From Actinopolymorpha rutila (lineage in GTDB: Bacteria; Actinomycetota; Actinomycetes; Propionibacteriales; Actinopolymorphaceae): 64,000 nucleotides of DNA. The stretch is taken from assembly GCF_013407855.1 (NCBI RefSeq), contig NZ_JACBZH010000001.1:2728001-2792000 (forward strand). Direction: 5' to 3'. The notes beneath the pieces were generated by a model. The model ran no database searches. It was not told where the DNA came from and saw only the letters and a program-made list of their open reading frames with translations. The position numbers and the translations under genes are program-made. Below are positions 10,053 to 16,679 of the stretch, piece after piece. The stretch's first letter is position 1. Each line of letters starts with the position of its first letter.

Positions 10053-10058
10053 TAGGGT
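10053..10058 (+). promoter_or_regulatory. Putative -10 box for the reductase/HAD cassette
   Basis: TAGGGT fits TAGRRT exactly and lies about 64 nt before the TTG start of the reductase gene, in the 155-nt gap after priA. This suggests the cassette has its own promoter. No clear -35 is seen. Confidence 0.35.
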
Positions 10059-10121: not shown

Positions 10122-12401
10122 TTGAGGCTCAGGGAGCGACTCGACGGGAAGCGGATGCTTCTCACCGGCGTCACCGGCTTCGTCGGCGAGGCACTGCTGC
10201 ACCGCATCCTCCGCGACCTCCCCGGCACCCACGTGGTGGCGCTGGTCCGGCCGAAGGGTTCGCTGACCGGGCGGGCCCGGATGGAGCAACTGCTCAACAA
10301 GCCGATCTTCGAACAGGCCCGGTCCCGTTACGACGGTGACACCGCGGCCCTGCTCGACGCCCGGATGAGTGTGCTCGAAGGCGACCTGTCCGACGTTCCG
10401 GAGTTGCCCGCCGATCTCGACGTGGTGATCCACTGCGCCGGCGACGTGTCGTTCGACCCGCCGATCCACCAGGCGTTCCAGACCAACGTGCTCGGCACCG
10501 AGATGCTGCTGCGCCGCATCCTCGACAGCGGCAGCCAGGCCCACTACCTCCACGTGTCCACGGCGTACGTCTCCGGCCGCCGTCGCGGCGCGATTCCGGA
10601 GGGGCCGGTCGACCACACCGCCGACTGGCGCACCGAGGCCCGCTGGGGCCAGGCCATGCGGGACCGGATCGAGGAGACCTCGCGGGCGCCCGGCGTCCTG
10701 TCCAAGCTGCGCCGGGAGGCCGAGCGGGAGCACCGCCGGGCCGGGCCGATCACCTCCGCCCAGGACACCGAGCGGCGCCGCAAGGAGTGGGTGGACACCA
10801 AGCTGGTCGAGGCCGGTGGAGAGCGGGCACGGTCTCTCGGCTGGACCGACGTCTACACGTTCACCAAGGCCCTGGGCGAACGCGTCGTGGAGGAGATCGG
10901 TGCACCGCTGCCGGTCACCATCCTGCGGCCGAGCATCATCGAGAGCGCACTCGAAACCCCGCACCCGGGCTGGATCGAGGGCTTCAAGATGGCCGAGCCG
11001 CTGATCCTGGCCTACGGCCGGGGTGAGCTGCCGGAGTTCCCGGCGAGCCCGGACTCCCAGTGCGACATCGTGCCGGTCGACCACGTGGTCAACGCCACCC
11101 TGGCCGCCGCGGCGGAACGACCGGAGCCGGGCAGTCCGGCGTACTTCCAGGTGACCTCGGGCCTGCGCAACCCGCTCACGTTCGCGATGGTGTTCGAGCT
11201 CGTCCACGAGTACTTCGACGCGCACCCGTTCGACATGAGCGAACGCGGCGCGGTACGCCTGCCGACGTGGCGGTTCCCGGGCGGTGAGCAGGTCGAGCGC
11301 ACGCTCGCGCTCGGCGAACGCGCCCACAAGGCCGCCGACTTCCTCATCACCCACGCACCGCGCGGCGAACGCGTCCGCAAGTTCGCCCGTGACCTGGACC
11401 AGCAGCGGCGCCGGCTGGACTTCCTGCGCCGCTACCACGACCTCTACCGCCCCTACCTCGAGACCGAGCTGGTCTTCACCGACGACCGGACCGTCGCGCT
11501 GTACAACGGCCTCGACCTGGAGGACCAGCGGGAGTTCTCCTTCGACATCACCTGCTTCGACTGGCATCACTACTTCGTCGAGGTGCACTGCCCGGCCGTC
11601 ACCGAGGCGATGCGCAAGTACGACGTGATCCGCCGCCGGCGCGGGCGCTCCACCCCGGCCGTGGCGTCGCAACTGCCGGCGGGTGAGGACATCGTGGCGG
11701 CCTTCGACATGGACGGCACGCTGTTGTCGTCCAACGTCGTGGAGACCTACCTCTGGCTGCGGATGCCCGAGCTGGACCGGCAGGGCAGGGCCCGCGAGCT
11801 CGGCGCGCTGATCCGGCGGATGCCCGGCTTCCTCAACGCCGAACGCAAGGACCGTGGCCGGTTCCTGCGCTCGGTCTACCGCCGCTACGCCGGTGCCGAC
11901 CTGGCCGAGCTGGAGCACATCGTCGACGAGATGCTGTCCCAGCACGTGCTCGAACGCGTGTCCGCGGCGGCCCTGCGTCGCGTGCGCGCCCACCAGGCGG
12001 CCGGCCACCGCACCGTGCTCATCACCGGCGCGATCCGTCCGCTGACCCGTCCGCTGGAGCCGTTGTTCGACGAGATCGTGGCGGCCGACCTGGCTGTCGA
12101 CGACCGCGGCCGGTGCACCGGGTTCCTGTCTGGCCCGCCGCTGGTGGGTGAGGCGCGGGCGGCCTGGCTGAAGCGGTACGCCGCCCAGCGCGACCTCGAC
12201 CTGTCGAAGTCGTACGCCTACGCCGACAGCCACTCCGACCTGCCGATGCTGCGCGTCGTCGGCCGCCCGGTCGCGGTCAGCCCCGACGTCCACCTGTGGC
12301 GGGAGGCCCGCAAGGGCCGCTGGCCGGTGGAGGAGTGGAAGACCTCGAGTGCGGTGTCCCGACTGGCCCTGCCCGGCGCGACCTCCGGGAGCAGCTCATG
12401 A
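10122..12401 (+). CDS. Fatty acyl-CoA reductase-like domain fused to HAD-IB phosphatase
   Basis: The 759-residue fusion opens with an NAD(P)-binding extended-SDR domain: TGVTGFVGEAL near residues 15-24, HVSTAYVSGRR, and Tyr-Lys in YTFTKALGE near 245-249. This is the layout of male-sterility/fatty acyl-CoA reductase proteins. A linker of about 150 residues leads to a HAD-IB domain beginning AAFDMDGTLLSSN (nucleophile Asp near 529) and ending YADSHSDLPML. Expected chemistry is NADPH reduction of an activated acyl group plus phosphate ester hydrolysis; substrates are unknown. I chose TTG at 10122 because GGAGGGG lies 5 nt upstream. The stop overlaps the next start (ATGA). Confidence 0.88.
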   Translation: MRLRERLDGKRMLLTGVTGFVGEALLHRILRDLPGTHVVALVRPKGSLTGRARMEQLLNKPIFEQARSRYDGDTAALLDARMSVLEGDLSDVPELPADLDVVIHCAGDVSFDPPIHQAFQTNVLGTEMLLRRILDSGSQAHYLHVSTAYVSGRRRGAIPEGPVDHTADWRTEARWGQAMRDRIEETSRAPGVLSKLRREAEREHRRAGPITSAQDTERRRKEWVDTKLVEAGGERARSLGWTDVYTFTKALGERVVEEIGAPLPVTILRPSIIESALETPHPGWIEGFKMAEPLILAYGRGELPEFPASPDSQCDIVPVDHVVNATLAAAAERPEPGSPAYFQVTSGLRNPLTFAMVFELVHEYFDAHPFDMSERGAVRLPTWRFPGGEQVERTLALGERAHKAADFLITHAPRGERVRKFARDLDQQRRRLDFLRRYHDLYRPYLETELVFTDDRTVALYNGLDLEDQREFSFDITCFDWHHYFVEVHCPAVTEAMRKYDVIRRRRGRSTPAVASQLPAGEDIVAAFDMDGTLLSSNVVETYLWLRMPELDRQGRARELGALIRRMPGFLNAERKDRGRFLRSVYRRYAGADLAELEHIVDEMLSQHVLERVSAAALRRVRAHQAAGHRTVLITGAIRPLTRPLEPLFDEIVAADLAVDDRGRCTGFLSGPPLVGEARAAWLKRYAAQRDLDLSKSYAYADSHSDLPMLRVVGRPVAVSPDVHLWREARKGRWPVEEWKTSSAVSRLALPGATSGSSS

Positions 12402-13582
12402 TGCTGGCGTTGGAGATGTACCGCTCGCTGCCCCGCTACATCGCGGCCCGGGCGGTGGGCGGCCGGGTTCCGGGCATCCTCACCGGCCCGGCGGCGCCGG
12501 TGCGGCTGGTCAACCGTGAGGAGCCGCGCACCGCGGCGGCCGGCTGGGCCCGGGTCAAGCCGATCCTGTCCGGTATCTGCGGCTCCGACCTCGGCGCGCT
12601 GTTCGGGCAGACCAGCATGTACTTCTCCGCCCTGGTGTCGATGCCGTTCGTGCCCGGCCACGAGGTGGTCGGCGAGCTGGTCGACGACTGCGAGGACCTC
12701 CCCGCCGGCACCCGTGTCGTGCTCGACCCGGTGCTGTCCTGCGCGGCCCGCGGGGTCGAGCGCTGCCAGTCCTGCGCGAACGGGCAGACCAACCGTTGCG
12801 ACCGGGTCACGGTCGGGCACGTCTCGCCCGGCCTGCAGACCGGCTACTGCGCCGACACCGGCGGTGGCTGGGGCGGGCAGTTGGTGGCCCACCGCAGCCA
12901 GTTGCACGCCGTACCCGACGGACTGTCCGACGAGCGCGCCGTGCTGGTCGAGCCGCTGTCCTGCGCGGTGCACACGGCGATGCGGGCCCAGGTGCCCGAC
13001 GGCGGGTCGGTGCTGGTGTCCGGTGCCGGCGCGGTCGGGTTGTTCGCGACGCTGGCACTTCGCGAGCTGACCCCGGCGGGCCGGATCAGCGTGGTCGCCA
13101 AGCACCCCCGCCAGCGCGAGCTGGCCAGGGCGTTCGGCGCGACCGACGTGCTGGCGCCCGACGAGGTGCCGGCCCGGGTGCGGCGGGCGACCCAGGCGTT
13201 CCGGCTGACCCCCGAACGCAGCGGTGAGTTCCTGCTCGGCGGAGTGGACGTCGGGATCGACGCCGTCGGCAGCAAGGACTCCCTCAGCACGACTCTTCGG
13301 GTCACCCGGGCCGGCGGCCGGGTGGTGCTGTCGGGCATGCCGGCGGCCGGAGCGGACCTGTCGCCGGTGTGGTTCCGGGAGCTGGAGGTCGTGGGCACCT
13401 ACGCCACCCAGGGCCGCGAAGCCTTCACCCGGGCCTTCGACCTGGCCGCGAGCGCGCCGCTGGACGGCGTGGTCGGCGGCCGATACCCCCTCTACCGTTG
13501 GCGGGAGGCGCTCGACCATGCCCACTCGGCCGGGCGGCTGGGGACCGTCAAGGTGGCGTTCGACCTAAGGAGCAGCAGGTGA
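12398..13582 (+). CDS. Zinc-dependent medium-chain alcohol dehydrogenase
   Basis: The 394-residue MDR protein has the catalytic zinc ligands in SGICGSD (near residue 60) and GHEVVGE (near 88). A four-Cys structural zinc lobe follows (CAARGVERCQSCANGQTNRC), and the nucleotide fold is SGAGAVGLFATLAL near 208. The substrate is not evident. Overlaps on both sides (ATGA with the reductase-HAD gene, GTGA with the LarA-like gene) suggest one pathway, where it would interconvert an alcohol and a carbonyl. An adjacent second ATG at 12401 is an alternative start. Confidence 0.92.
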   Translation: MMLALEMYRSLPRYIAARAVGGRVPGILTGPAAPVRLVNREEPRTAAAGWARVKPILSGICGSDLGALFGQTSMYFSALVSMPFVPGHEVVGELVDDCEDLPAGTRVVLDPVLSCAARGVERCQSCANGQTNRCDRVTVGHVSPGLQTGYCADTGGGWGGQLVAHRSQLHAVPDGLSDERAVLVEPLSCAVHTAMRAQVPDGGSVLVSGAGAVGLFATLALRELTPAGRISVVAKHPRQRELARAFGATDVLAPDEVPARVRRATQAFRLTPERSGEFLLGGVDVGIDAVGSKDSLSTTLRVTRAGGRVVLSGMPAAGADLSPVWFRELEVVGTYATQGREAFTRAFDLAASAPLDGVVGGRYPLYRWREALDHAHSAGRLGTVKVAFDLRSSR

Positions 13583-15159
13583 GCCGACCAGGATTCGTAC
13601 TCGAGGTCGACGACCGTACGCCACCCCTCATCGTCCACGAGGGCGAGGGGTTCCGGCTGGAGAAGTTCCCGCTCGGCACCCGGGTGGTCTACTCCCCGGA
13701 GTCGCTGCCGGGGTTGCGTGACGTCGACGGCGCGATCAGGCACGCCCTGGAGCAGCCGGAGAACTCCGAGCCGCTGCGGGCGCTGCTGCGGCCGGGCATG
13801 AAGCTCACCATCGCCTTCGACGACGTGTCGCTGCCGCTGCCCCCGATGAAGCGGCCGGACATCCGGCAGCGGGTCATCGAGCAGGTGCTGACGATGGCCG
13901 CCGAGGCCGGCGTCGACGACGTGCAGATCATCGCGGCGCTGGCCCTGCACCGGCGGATGACGCCGAGCGAGCTCCAGCACGCCCTCGGCGAGCGGGTCTA
14001 CCGTTCGTTCGCGCCGGACGGCCTGCTCTACAACCACGACGCCGAGGACCCCGACAACCTCGAGTTCATCGGCACCACCGACCAGGGCGAAGAGGTCGAG
14101 ATCAACAAGCGGGCGGCGCAGTCCGACCTGCTGGTGTACGTCAACATCAACATCGTGCCGATGGACGGCGGGCACAAGTCGGTGCCGATCGGCCTGGCGT
14201 CCTACCGCTCGCTGCGCCACCACCACAACAGCCGCACCATGGTCCACTCGCGGTCCTTCATGGACCACAAGAAGTCGGCCATGCACCACTCCGCCTGGCG
14301 GATGGGCCGGCTGCTGAAGGACCACCTGAAGATCTTCACGATCGAGACCACGCTCAACAACGACGTGTTCCCCGCGCCGTACGAGTTCCTCAACAAGCGC
14401 GAGTGGGAGTGGAACGTCCGCGACCAGGCCACCATGCTGGCCGCCAAGCGCGGGCTGGCGGTGGCCCCGTCGAAGCTGAAGCGGAAGATGTTCCAGGGGA
14501 TGCAGGCGCCCTACGGCATCACCGGCGTGCACGCGGGTGAGACCGAGGCCGTGCACGAGAAGACCCTCGAGAACGTCTACCGCCAGCAGGCGGTGGAGGT
14601 GCAGGGCCAGTCCGACGTCCTCATCATGGGCGTGCCCTACCTCTGCCCGTACAACGTCGACGCGGTGATGAACCCCATCCTCGCCACCTGCATGGGGCTG
14701 GGGTACTTCTTCAACTCCTACCGCAACAAGCCGGTGGTCCGGCCCGGCGGCGCGGTCATCCTCTACCACCCGGTGCCGTACGAGTTCAGCCAGCTGCACC
14801 ACCCGAGCTACGTCGACTTCTTCGAGGAGGTGCTGGCGGAGTCGACCGACCCGGCGACCATCGAGCAGCGCTTCGAGAAGCAGTACGCCACCGACCCGTG
14901 GTACATCCACCTCTACCGCACGTCGTACGCCTACCACGGCGTGCACCCGTTCTACATGTGGTACTGGGCGGCGCACGCGATGGACCACGTGGGCGACGTC
15001 GTGTGGGTGGGCGCGGACCGGCGCGCGGTGGAGCGGATGGGCTTCCGGGCCGCGTCCACGCTGGCCGACGCGCTGGAGATGGTGAGCGGCACGGTCGGGC
15101 GTTCGCCGTCGATCACCTACACGCACAACCCGCCGCACCTGATCTCGGATGTGCGGTGA
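13579..15159 (+). CDS. LarA-like (DUF2088) nickel-pincer racemase homologue, divergent
   Basis: The 526-residue protein resembles LarA lactate racemase: LTIAFDDVSLPLPPMKRPD matches the N-terminal domain, IIAALALHRRMTPSE carries the first catalytic-type His, and DGGHKSVP resembles the GGxK motif whose Lys binds the nickel-pincer cofactor. A His-rich RHHHN follows. The His that normally precedes GGxK by about ten residues appears replaced by Ile or Asn (NINIVPM). It is also about 100 residues longer than classic LarA. No larB, larC or larE is nearby. AAGGAG precedes the GTG. The role is probably racemase, epimerase or a related hydroxyacid reaction. Confidence 0.75.
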   Translation: MSRPGFVLEVDDRTPPLIVHEGEGFRLEKFPLGTRVVYSPESLPGLRDVDGAIRHALEQPENSEPLRALLRPGMKLTIAFDDVSLPLPPMKRPDIRQRVIEQVLTMAAEAGVDDVQIIAALALHRRMTPSELQHALGERVYRSFAPDGLLYNHDAEDPDNLEFIGTTDQGEEVEINKRAAQSDLLVYVNINIVPMDGGHKSVPIGLASYRSLRHHHNSRTMVHSRSFMDHKKSAMHHSAWRMGRLLKDHLKIFTIETTLNNDVFPAPYEFLNKREWEWNVRDQATMLAAKRGLAVAPSKLKRKMFQGMQAPYGITGVHAGETEAVHEKTLENVYRQQAVEVQGQSDVLIMGVPYLCPYNVDAVMNPILATCMGLGYFFNSYRNKPVVRPGGAVILYHPVPYEFSQLHHPSYVDFFEEVLAESTDPATIEQRFEKQYATDPWYIHLYRTSYAYHGVHPFYMWYWAAHAMDHVGDVVWVGADRRAVERMGFRAASTLADALEMVSGTVGRSPSITYTHNPPHLISDVR

Positions 15160-15166
15160 GGGTGGG

Positions 15167-16099
15167 ATGAGCAGCAAGAACCCCGTGCGCTTCGTCCGGG
15201 AGACCGCGCAGGACGTGCGGACCGTGGCGCGGGGCTGGCGGTGGGGCCGGCGGCCGCTGGTGCCGTTGTCGGCCCAGCCGTTCCAGCCGCCCAAGCAGCC
15301 CTCGGTGTTCCCCACGGCCTGGGCTCGTACGCCCACCGCCAACGCCGTCCGCGACGTGGTGCAGCGGTTCGGGCTGCATCCGTTGCTGAGCTCCACCATC
15401 ACGCCGCAGACGGCCGGGCTGGACGTCCTCACCACGCTGAAGCCGCCGGTCCTGTTCGTGGCCAACCACACCTCGCACCTGGACACCCCGCTGATCCTGT
15501 GCTCGCTGCCGGACGAGTGGCGCCGCCGCACCGCCGTCGCGGCCGCGGCCGACTACTTCTTCGACACCTGGTGGCGGGCCAGCGGCTCGGCGATGGTGTT
15601 CAACACCTTCCCGATCGAACGCCGCGGCGGCACCCTGTCGACCACCCCGGGCGACCTGCTCGACCAGGGCTGGAACGTCGTGGTGTTCCCCGAGGGGACC
15701 CGTTCGGTGGACGGCTGGGCCAGCAGGTTCCGCCTCGGCGCGTCCTGGCTGGCCGTCGAGCACGGCGTCCCCGTCGTCCCGATCGGGATCCGCGGCTCCT
15801 ACGCCGCGATGCCGCGCGGGCGCGGCTGGCCCCGTCCGGGCCGGCTGCCGGTGCGGATCCGCTTCGGTGCGCCGATCTGGCCGGCCGAGGGCGAGGCGCC
15901 GCGCACCTTCGCGCCCCGCATCCAGGCGGGCGTGGCGCGACTGCTCGACGAGGACGCGACCTCCTGGTGGGACGCCACCCGGCGGGCCGCACGGGGCGAG
16001 ACGCCCGACCCGTCCGGGCCGCCGGTCGCGTCGTGGCGGCGGATCTGGGCACAGACCGCACCGCCCGCCGAGGGCCGCAAGCGCGGTGCGTGGCGCTAG
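15167..16099 (+). CDS. PlsC-type 1-acylglycerol-3-phosphate / lysophospholipid acyltransferase
   Basis: The 310-residue protein has the two key acyltransferase motifs, NHTSHLDTP (NHx4D, near residue 100) and FPEGTRS (near 174), followed by the PIGIRGSY-type block. The family transfers an acyl chain to a glycerol-phosphate or similar acceptor at the membrane. A strong GAGGGTGGG precedes the ATG at 15167, only 7 nt after the LarA-like stop. It is the last gene of the compact four-gene cassette and points to a lipid product. The acceptor could be a standard lysolipid or a product of the upstream enzymes. Confidence 0.9.
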
Positions 16100-16145: not shown

Positions 16146-16679
16146 ATGAGCTCGGCACCCAATCCCTACGACGCGCTGCCGAAGGTGGCGGAGTTCACCC
16201 TGACCAGCGACGACATCGCCGACGGTCAGACGATGGCGACGCCGCATCTGTCCGGGATCTTCGGTGCGGGCGGGTCCGACACCTCACCGCACCTGGCCTG
16301 GTCCGGCTTCCCCGAGGAGACCCGCGGCTTCGCCGTCACCGTCTACGACCCGGACGCGCCGACCGCGAGCGGCTTCTGGCACTGGGCCGTCTACAACCTC
16401 CCGGTGACCACGACCGAACTGCCCACCGGTGCCGGTGAGACGGACGGCGCCAAGCTGCCCGACGGCGCGGTCACCCTCACCAACGACGGCGGCGTACGCC
16501 AGTACCTCGGCGCCGCTCCGCCGCCCGGGCACGGTCCGCACCGGTACTACTTCGTGGTGCACGCCCTCGACGTGGACTCACTCGACCTGCCCGAGGGTGC
16601 GAGCCCGGCACTGCTCGGCTTCAACCTGTTCGGGCACACCGTCGGCCGGGCGATGCTCGTCCCGACCTTCGAGGCATGA
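16146..16679 (+). CDS. YbhB/YbcL family PEBP protein
   Basis: The 177-residue protein has the phosphatidylethanolamine-binding/Raf-kinase-inhibitor fold markers: [44 protein letters not shown] and [13 protein letters not shown]. Bacterial members are small soluble proteins of unclear function; lipid or anion binding is inferred from the fold. GGGAGG precedes the ATG at 16146. The stop overlaps the hisF start (ATGA), so its translation is coupled to hisF although it is no obvious histidine enzyme. Confidence 0.93.

What the first reader, a model, noticed from the sequence alone, without database searches (positions are those of the whole stretch)
10122..16099. Four-gene putative lipid-modification cassette inserted in the histidine operon
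A fatty-acyl-reductase/HAD fusion, a zinc alcohol dehydrogenase, a LarA-like protein and a PlsC-type acyltransferase are packed with ATGA/GTGA overlaps or 7-nt gaps, between priA and hisF. Seen: the order, the overlaps, intact motifs and a separate TAGGGT box upstream. Known: the individual folds. Inference: they act in one pathway that reduces an acyl group, removes a phosphate, adjusts an alcohol or hydroxyacid centre and acylates the product, giving an unusual glycerolipid or hydroxy/ether lipid. I know of no described pathway with this set.
Basis: partly seen in the sequence, partly recalled or inferred. Interest (0 to 1): 0.75.

Follow-up and report, generated by a model that had tools for sequence, protein, structure and literature searches.

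The report
Nickel-enzyme operon for unusual glycerolipids
A set of four co-transcribed genes, kept together across a large bacterial phylum, probably makes unusual (likely ether-linked) membrane lipids and includes a nickel-cofactor enzyme whose reaction nobody knows; it may be the missing way in which these bacteria make ether bonds.

Summary
In detail: FAR-HAD fusion, Zn-dehydrogenase, LarA-like protein and PlsC, with the stated overlaps and 7-nt gap. It is no local curiosity. Of 135 LarA-like loci, 110 carry the same four genes in the same order and strand. The FAR-HAD fusion and this LarA subfamily co-occur in 76 of 81 genomes having either (296 sampled, p~1e-64). The histidine-operon site is seen only in Actinopolymorpha and Kribbella and is incidental.

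New evidence changes the reading. The LarA-like protein belongs to LarAH groups 14/15/16, which have no known reaction. It keeps the nickel-pincer residues, but the loop with the second catalytic histidine is missing. larB/C/E lie beside the cassette in other lineages. In Rubrobacter-type genomes PlsC is absent and a PlsY gene stands directly before FAR-HAD (25 of 25), so the pathway handles glycerol-phosphate lipids. Rubrobacterales have ~46% ether-linked phospholipids (secondary citation), yet the Rubrobacter-type genomes checked lack recognisable AGPS and Ger/PlsA.

Best explanation: an AGPS-independent ether/ester glycerolipid operon in which the NPN enzyme does the key redox step. Operon and glycerolipid link: strong. 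Ether product: about even. NPN step: speculative.

The parts
10053..10058 (+). TAGGGT -10-like box in GGATAGGGTGTTGCG, 64 nt before the first gene
   Evidence: conserved as TA(G/A/T)GGT in 8/8 Actinopolymorphaceae, absent in Kribbella where the gene is coupled to hisA; consensus scan negative
10122..12401 (+). FAR-HAD fusion, 759 aa, TTG start: fatty acyl-CoA reductase fused to HAD-IB phosphatase
   Evidence: Pfam/NCBIfam; best solved relative 7EOZ fatty acyl-CoA reductase, E 4e-100 over profile positions 3-500; start aligned in relatives
10161..11099 (+). FAR NAD(P)-binding domain (NAD_binding_4)
11418..11600 (+). FAR C-terminal 'Sterile' domain
   Evidence: 8.7e-9
11697..12254 (+). HAD-IB phosphatase domain (TIGR01490 type)
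   Evidence: nucleophile Asp invariant in 15 sequences, second Asp often Glu
12398..13582 (+). Zn-dependent medium-chain dehydrogenase, polyol/ketose-reductase type
   Evidence: sequence profile nearest PDB 1E3J NADP(H)-dependent ketose reductase; fold near threonine and ketose dehydrogenases
13579..15159 (+). LarA-like protein, LarAH14/15/16 family, predicted nickel-pincer-nucleotide (NPN) enzyme with one catalytic histidine
   Evidence: NF052592 930 bits vs cutoff 740; AF2 model pLDDT 90; nearest fold 9Q3K single-histidine LarA; residues D82, H124, K200, H216 invariant
15167..16099 (+). PlsC-type 1-acylglycerol-3-phosphate acyltransferase (upstream in-frame ATG at 15149)
   Evidence: NHxSHxD and PEG(G/A/T)R conserved; PDB relative 5KYM PlsC

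Best explanation
The four genes form an ancient actinobacterial operon that builds a non-standard glycerolipid, most likely a mixed ether/ester (alkyl-acyl) lipid, by a route that does not need alkyl-DHAP synthase (AGPS). Proposed steps: (1) the FAR domain reduces acyl-CoA to a fatty aldehyde or alcohol [inferred from family]; (2) the LarA-like protein, carrying the NPN cofactor made by LarB/C/E, does the redox step that creates the C-O-C bond on a glycerol/dihydroxyacetone-phosphate backbone. For example, it could move a hydride between backbone C2 and the hemiacetal formed with the fatty aldehyde, which gives alkyl-DHAP [speculative]; (3) the ketose-reductase-like Zn-ADH reduces the C2 ketone to the hydroxyl [inferred]; (4) PlsC acylates the remaining hydroxyl, with PlsY supplying an acyl-glycerol-phosphate in Rubrobacter [inferred from family]; (5) the HAD domain removes the phosphate when a neutral lipid or a new headgroup is wanted [inferred]. 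Shown here: the parts, their strict association, NPN-site conservation, larB/C/E neighbours, and the PlsC/PlsY exchange.
For: Same order and strand in 110 of 135 loci, 8 more cut by contig ends; FAR-HAD and LarAH14 co-occur in 76 of 81 genomes having either, Fisher 1e-64. Distance matrices of FAR, ADH and LarA correlate (r 0.84-0.87) and the LarA tree follows taxonomy. FAR is a true fatty acyl-CoA reductase by profile. ADH is nearest a ketose reductase. In 25 of 25 Rubrobacter-type genomes with the flank held, PlsY directly precedes FAR-HAD while PlsC is absent. Rubrobacterales hold ~46% ether-linked phospholipids (PMC10821996 citing Sinninghe Damste 2023), and the same paper is cited in PMC11150832. 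Known ether routes: no DUF2229 (Ger/PlsA) in 13 cassette genomes while Thermotoga rings; no AGPS-grade match in six Rubrobacter-type genomes; no PlsC-bearing ElbD-like FAR protein seen among the strong FAR matches. AGPS is not enriched with the cassette (13/77 vs 54/219). larB/C/E neighbours in 16 loci, ten of their proteins checked with family models; own genome has larB, larC, larE.
Against: No ether lipid has been shown in Actinopolymorpha, Kribbella, Nocardioides, Frankia or Acidimicrobiia in anything I could read. The own genome does have an AGPS-like gene elsewhere, so a classical route is possible in this organism. The Rubrobacterales lipid paper itself was not available, and the assignment of family f19 to Rubrobacter rests on an MpgS about 95% identical to PDB 3F1Y plus remembered source organism and genome length. 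No enzyme of this kind has been assayed with a lipid substrate. The ether-forming role of the LarA-like protein rests on elimination. Nine of 72 genomes lack a detectable LarC. An additional LarA homologue exists in the own genome, so larB/C/E there need not serve the cassette.
Confidence: 0.5

Rival explanations
1. The cassette makes a hydroxy- or diol-lipid: a 2-hydroxyacyl thioester is reduced by FAR, the LarA-like protein sets or isomerises the alpha-hydroxy centre as its family name says, ADH adjusts the second oxygen, and PlsC acylates it.
For: NCBIfam names the family 'NPN-dependent hydroxyacid isomerase'; all characterised LarA homologues act on 2-hydroxyacids.
Against: Second catalytic His loop, Arg75 (binds the substrate carboxylate) and Lys298 are not conserved; LarAH14 of Frankia was inactive on all hydroxyacids tested; it does not explain PlsY in Rubrobacter.
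Confidence: 0.17
2. Backbone stereochemistry: ADH and the LarA-like protein oxidise/invert C2 of a (lyso)glycerol-phosphate lipid to give the opposite glycerol-phosphate stereoisomer, while FAR supplies an independent alkyl chain.
For: PlsY and PlsC accept both glycerol-phosphate stereoforms (PMC13400652); ADH is of C2-ketose-reductase type.
Against: A one-histidine LarA is a poor inverting enzyme by the established two-histidine mechanism; no role for FAR.
Confidence: 0.07
3. A fatty-alcohol or wax-ester pathway: FAR and ADH produce alcohols that the PlsC-like protein esterifies; the LarA-like protein is accessory.
For: FAR is the committed enzyme of wax synthesis in other bacteria (established knowledge); FAR match to 7EOZ.
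Against: Among the families identified beside the cassette there is no wax synthase; PlsC has the H(X)4D glycerophosphate acyltransferase motifs; PlsY replacement points to glycerol-phosphate.
Confidence: 0.08
4. Classical AGPS-type ether synthesis in which the cassette supplies alcohol (FAR), ketone reduction (ADH) and acylation (PlsC) and a separate AGPS makes the ether bond; the LarA-like protein has another job.
For: Own genome has an AGPS-like gene (E 9e-78 to PDB 2UUU).
Against: AGPS-like matches in only 13 of 77 cassette genomes against 54 of 219 without it; none AGPS-grade in the six Rubrobacter-type genomes checked.
Confidence: 0.1
5. The cassette belongs functionally to histidine synthesis (HAD domain as histidinol phosphatase).
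For: Location in the his operon; HAD domain has weak similarity to HAD-type histidinol phosphatases (75 bits, cutoffs 280-400).
Against: Found in the his operon only in Actinopolymorpha and Kribbella; the window already has a HisN-like phosphatase; FAR/LarA/PlsC have no role there.
Confidence: 0.01

Closest known systems
Myxococcus xanthus elb operon (ElbB HAD protein, ElbD FAR-ACS-ACP-acyltransferase, ElbE)
   Same: FAR domain, HAD phosphatase and AGPAT-like acyltransferase in one operon; makes alkyl/vinyl ether lipids largely without AGPS (PMC9131029)
   Different: No LarA-like NPN protein or Zn-ADH described; domains fused differently; ElbC and ElbA/E have no counterpart here; direct sequence comparison was not possible
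Mammalian peroxisomal ether-lipid pathway (FAR1, GNPAT, AGPS, PexRAP, AGPAT, PAP)
   Same: Parts list matches one for one except for AGPS: FAR, acyltransferase (PlsY/PlsC), ketone reductase (ADH), phosphatase (HAD)
   Different: AGPS not in the cassette and not linked to it; an NPN protein stands in its place; ADH is MDR, not SDR
Ger / PlsA reductive ether synthesis (Thermotoga, Desulfatibacillum, clostridia)
   Same: Ether bond made without AGPS (PMC11150832)
   Different: DUF2229 marker absent from all 13 cassette genomes tested, positive control rings
LarA-like single-histidine proteins of Streptococcus plurextorum and Blautia wexlerae (9Q3K, 9Q3J)
   Same: Nearest fold (TM 0.75/0.82), second catalytic His missing, same Ni-His, Lys and Asp positions
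   Different: There Asn replaces His and Lys replaces Arg; here the loop is four residues shorter and Arg is Leu; carbohydrate-gene context there, lipid-gene context here
LarAH14 of Frankia sp. (Desguin et al. 2020)
   Same: Frankia members of this family lie in this very operon in the Frankia loci; purified, NPN-supplemented protein had no activity on seven substrates
   Different: Same family; never tested with lipid substrates

Membership tests
LarAH14/15/16 family (NF052592) | score above curated cutoff over full length | tested here: met
   930 bits vs 740, profile 1-520
NPN-dependent LarA superfamily | Ni-ligand His, cofactor-binding Lys, ribose-contacting Asp, first catalytic His | tested here: met
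   H216, K200, D82, H124 invariant in 15 sequences
NPN-dependent LarA superfamily | second catalytic His (His174), Arg75 and Lys298 of the racemase mechanism | tested here: not met
   His174 loop missing in the alignment; Arg75 aligns with Leu85, nearly invariant; Lys298 has no clear counterpart
NPN-dependent LarA superfamily | cofactor biosynthesis genes larB, larC, larE in the genome | tested here: met
   own genome larB+larC, larE; adjacent to cassette in other genomes
NPN-dependent LarA superfamily | binds NPN and is active | not testable with these tools
   needs biochemistry
Fatty acyl-CoA reductase | NAD_binding_4 plus FAR C-terminal domain, GxxGF and YxxxK motifs, full-length match to a FAR | tested here: met
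PlsC/AGPAT | NHX4D and FPEGTR blocks | tested here: met
AGPS-dependent ether lipid pathway | AGPS in the cassette or co-occurring with it | tested here: not met
   13/77 with vs 54/219 without cassette, p 0.2; no AGPS-grade match in six Rubrobacter-type genomes
Ger/PlsA ether lipid pathway | DUF2229-containing Ger/PlsA protein | tested here: not met
   0 of 13 genomes, Thermotoga control positive
elb (ElbD) ether lipid operon | FAR, ACS, ACP, acyltransferase in one protein | tested here: not met
   own genome's only strong FAR match is the cassette protein; other large reductases in Rubrobacter-type genomes read as A-PCP-reductase proteins without acyltransferase, and G041 has none
Ether-lipid biosynthesis operon (functional class) | produces alkyl-glycerol ethers | not testable with these tools
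   only the taxonomic coincidence with Rubrobacterales ether lipids

The most novel reading that the evidence does not exclude
An organonickel (NPN) enzyme forms the ether bond of a bacterial membrane lipid by hydride transfer, replacing FAD-dependent AGPS. The cassette would then be a third AGPS- and Ger-independent aerobic ether-lipid route, ancestral to much of Actinomycetota, and the first known reaction of the one-histidine LarA groups 14/15.
Probability: 0.2. Interest if true: 0.95.

Novelty: new variant of a known kind. Interest (0 to 1): 0.77.

Why it matters
It gives a concrete substrate class (glycerolipids) to a widespread NPN protein family tested without success on hydroxyacids, and names candidate genes for the ether lipids of Rubrobacterales, whose genomes seem to lack the known ether-bond enzymes. 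If right, mixed ether/ester lipids should occur in many ordinary soil actinobacteria (Kribbella, Nocardioides, Frankia, Actinomadura, Acidimicrobiia), where fatty-acid profiling would miss them. That matters for the 'lipid divide' and for lipid biomarkers. It can be tested at once by lipidomics on existing strains.

Tried and rejected
Histidine-operon role: rejected, site is lineage-specific and HisN-like gene present. Chance neighbourhood: rejected. Ordinary 2-hydroxyacid racemase: disfavoured by residues and by published negative assays. LarA-like protein as a non-NPN relic (as suggested for group 16): disfavoured by invariant Lys/His and larBCE neighbours. AGPS coupling: tested, not found. 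Ger/PlsA: tested, absent. ElbD-like FAR in Rubrobacter-type genomes: candidates read as A-PCP-reductase proteins from their sequences. Other recurrent neighbours: a TetR-type regulator in 28 loci; D-Ala-D-Ala ligase in Acidimicrobiia; no further lipid gene that recurs across lineages. Viral fold search: no match. Paper searches for a described cassette of this composition: none found. Could not read: Sinninghe Damste 2023 (not held), which may itself discuss candidate ether genes, and the Desguin 2020 supplement (Table S1 neighbours of group 14), so part of the gene association may already be tabulated there.
Full report
WHAT IS THERE. The window lies in a 6.95 Mb actinobacterial chromosome. 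Its closest named relative is Actinopolymorpha pittospori (94% identity over the LarA-like protein). Four tightly packed + strand genes fill 10122-16099 between hisA/priA and a PEBP gene followed by hisF. The first gene encodes a fatty acyl-CoA reductase (NAD_binding_4 plus Sterile domain) fused to a HAD-IB phosphatase. The second is a Zn-dependent medium-chain dehydrogenase, the third a LarA-like protein, the fourth a PlsC-type acyltransferase. The TAGGGT box is real (10053-10058). It is conserved as TA(G/A/T)GGT in all eight Actinopolymorphaceae compared, while Kribbella couples the first gene directly to hisA.

IT IS A PHYLUM-WIDE OPERON. In 296 sampled genomes of the phylum, 72 have the LarA subfamily over its cutoff, and fragments bring this to 77. 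The FAR-HAD fusion is in 80, and 76 have both (Fisher p about 1e-64). Of 135 loci with flanks, 110 carry FAR-HAD > ADH > LarA-like > PlsC in that order and strand; eight more are consistent but cut by contig ends; eight are the Rubrobacter-type form with PlsY in place of PlsC. Named carriers include Actinopolymorpha, Kribbella, Nocardioides, Frankia, Actinomadura, Actinoallomurus, Phytohabitans and Acidimicrobiia. The tree of the LarA-like protein follows taxonomy, and the distances of FAR, ADH and LarA agree with one another (r 0.84-0.87). This means mostly vertical descent with losses: in the order sampled, family f1 has 8 of 8, family f2 only 4 of 17. The histidine-operon site is seen only in Actinopolymorpha and Kribbella, so it is incidental.

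THE LarA-LIKE PROTEIN. It scores 930 bits (cutoff 740) to NF052592, 'LarAH14/15/16'. In Desguin et al. 2020 the Frankia member LarAH14 had no activity in seven assays, and the authors note that groups lacking His174 may do another hydride-mediated reaction (PMC7583248). Across 15 diverse members the counterparts of Asp72, His108, Lys184 and His200 are invariant (D82, H124, K200, H216). Arg75 aligns with Leu85, and the loop with His174 is missing. The AlphaFold model (pLDDT 90) is closest to 9Q3K, the single-histidine LarA-like protein with bound NPN (PMC12611868). larB, larC or larE genes lie beside the cassette in 16 loci from several lineages; ten of these proteins were checked with family models, nine above their cutoffs and one LarB marginally below. 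LarC is found in 63 of 72 LarAH14 genomes against 130 of 224 others. The own genome has all three. The protein is therefore very probably an NPN enzyme, with a reaction other than two-histidine racemisation.

THE LIPID LINK. The FAR domain's best solved relative is a fatty acyl-CoA reductase over its whole length (7EOZ, E 4e-100). The ADH profile is nearest a ketose reductase and other polyol dehydrogenases (fold). PlsC keeps the glycerophosphate acyltransferase blocks. The most informative comparison is family f19, which lacks PlsC beside LarA. In 25 of 25 genomes with the flank held, a PlsY gene (G3P acyltransferase, PF02660) stands directly upstream of FAR-HAD on the same strand. Two unrelated acyltransferases of glycerol-phosphate lipid synthesis thus occupy the operon in different lineages, which ties the pathway to glycerolipids. 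Family f19 is Rubrobacter-type: genome G041 has an MpgS about 95% identical to PDB 3F1Y, which I recall as the Rubrobacter xylanophilus enzyme, and its length matches the remembered R. xylanophilus chromosome.

WHY ETHER LIPIDS. Rubrobacterales hold about 46% ether-linked phospholipids (PMC10821996 citing Sinninghe Damste et al. 2023; also cited in PMC11150832). Known routes were tested. Ger/PlsA marker DUF2229: 0 of 13 cassette genomes, Thermotoga control positive. AGPS: in six Rubrobacter-type genomes the best matches are at the level of glycolate-oxidase-like paralogues (best E 3e-28), whereas the own-genome AGPS-like protein matches solved AGPS at 9e-78 and 5e-60. Across the phylum AGPS is not enriched in cassette genomes (13/77 vs 54/219). 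ElbD: the other strong FAR-like proteins in Rubrobacter-type genomes read as A-PCP-reductase proteins without an acyltransferase, and G041 has none. The cassette supplies a counterpart of each step of the mammalian ether route except AGPS, and shares FAR, HAD and acyltransferase with the Myxococcus elb operon, whose main activity is AGPS-independent (PMC9131029). By elimination the NPN protein is the candidate for the missing step. That inference is weak on its own and is marked speculative.

MECHANISM, GRADED. Shown: parts, order, conservation, NPN-site residues, larB/C/E neighbours, PlsC/PlsY exchange. Well inferred: acyl-CoA reduction, glycerol-phosphate acylation, NPN dependence. Plausible: C2-ketone reduction by the ADH, dephosphorylation by HAD; note that the second HAD Asp is Glu in many relatives, though Asp here. 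Speculative: ether formation by NPN hydride transfer, and which glycerol position bears the alkyl chain.

LIMITS. The Rubrobacterales lipid paper and the Desguin supplement could not be read, so parts of this association may already be reported. No lipid data exist in hand for the named carriers outside Rubrobacterales. Searches were of sampled genomes, some incomplete.

Noticed in passing
window 16146-16679: PEBP (YbhB-type) gene between PlsC and hisF varies fast among Actinopolymorpha species (45-89% identity) and is not part of the conserved cassette.
   Followed up: partly
window 11697-12254: HAD nucleophile motif is DxDGT here but DxEGT or DxENT in many other lineages, an unusual substitution for a HAD phosphatase.
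   Followed up: no
L079 9519-11394, similar genes in L081: Protoglobin and MOSC-domain genes lie between ADH and the LarA-like gene in the R. xylanophilus-like locus.
   Followed up: no
L230 4857-8024 and L231, L232, L234: Several Rubrobacter-type genomes, not G041, carry a roughly 1050-aa protein that reads as adenylation-PCP-reductase.
   Followed up: partly
L244 (G000:C1:5237640-5239010): A further, distant LarA homologue sits elsewhere in the own genome, context unexamined.
   Followed up: no
L183 1438-3159 (G000:C1:668848-670566): Own genome has an AGPS-like protein; such proteins are common in Mycobacterium- and Streptomyces-like genomes lacking the cassette.
   Followed up: partly
L087 2162-2794 and 27 other loci: A TetR-type regulator lies next to the cassette in 28 loci, on either side; absent in the window.
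   Followed up: no
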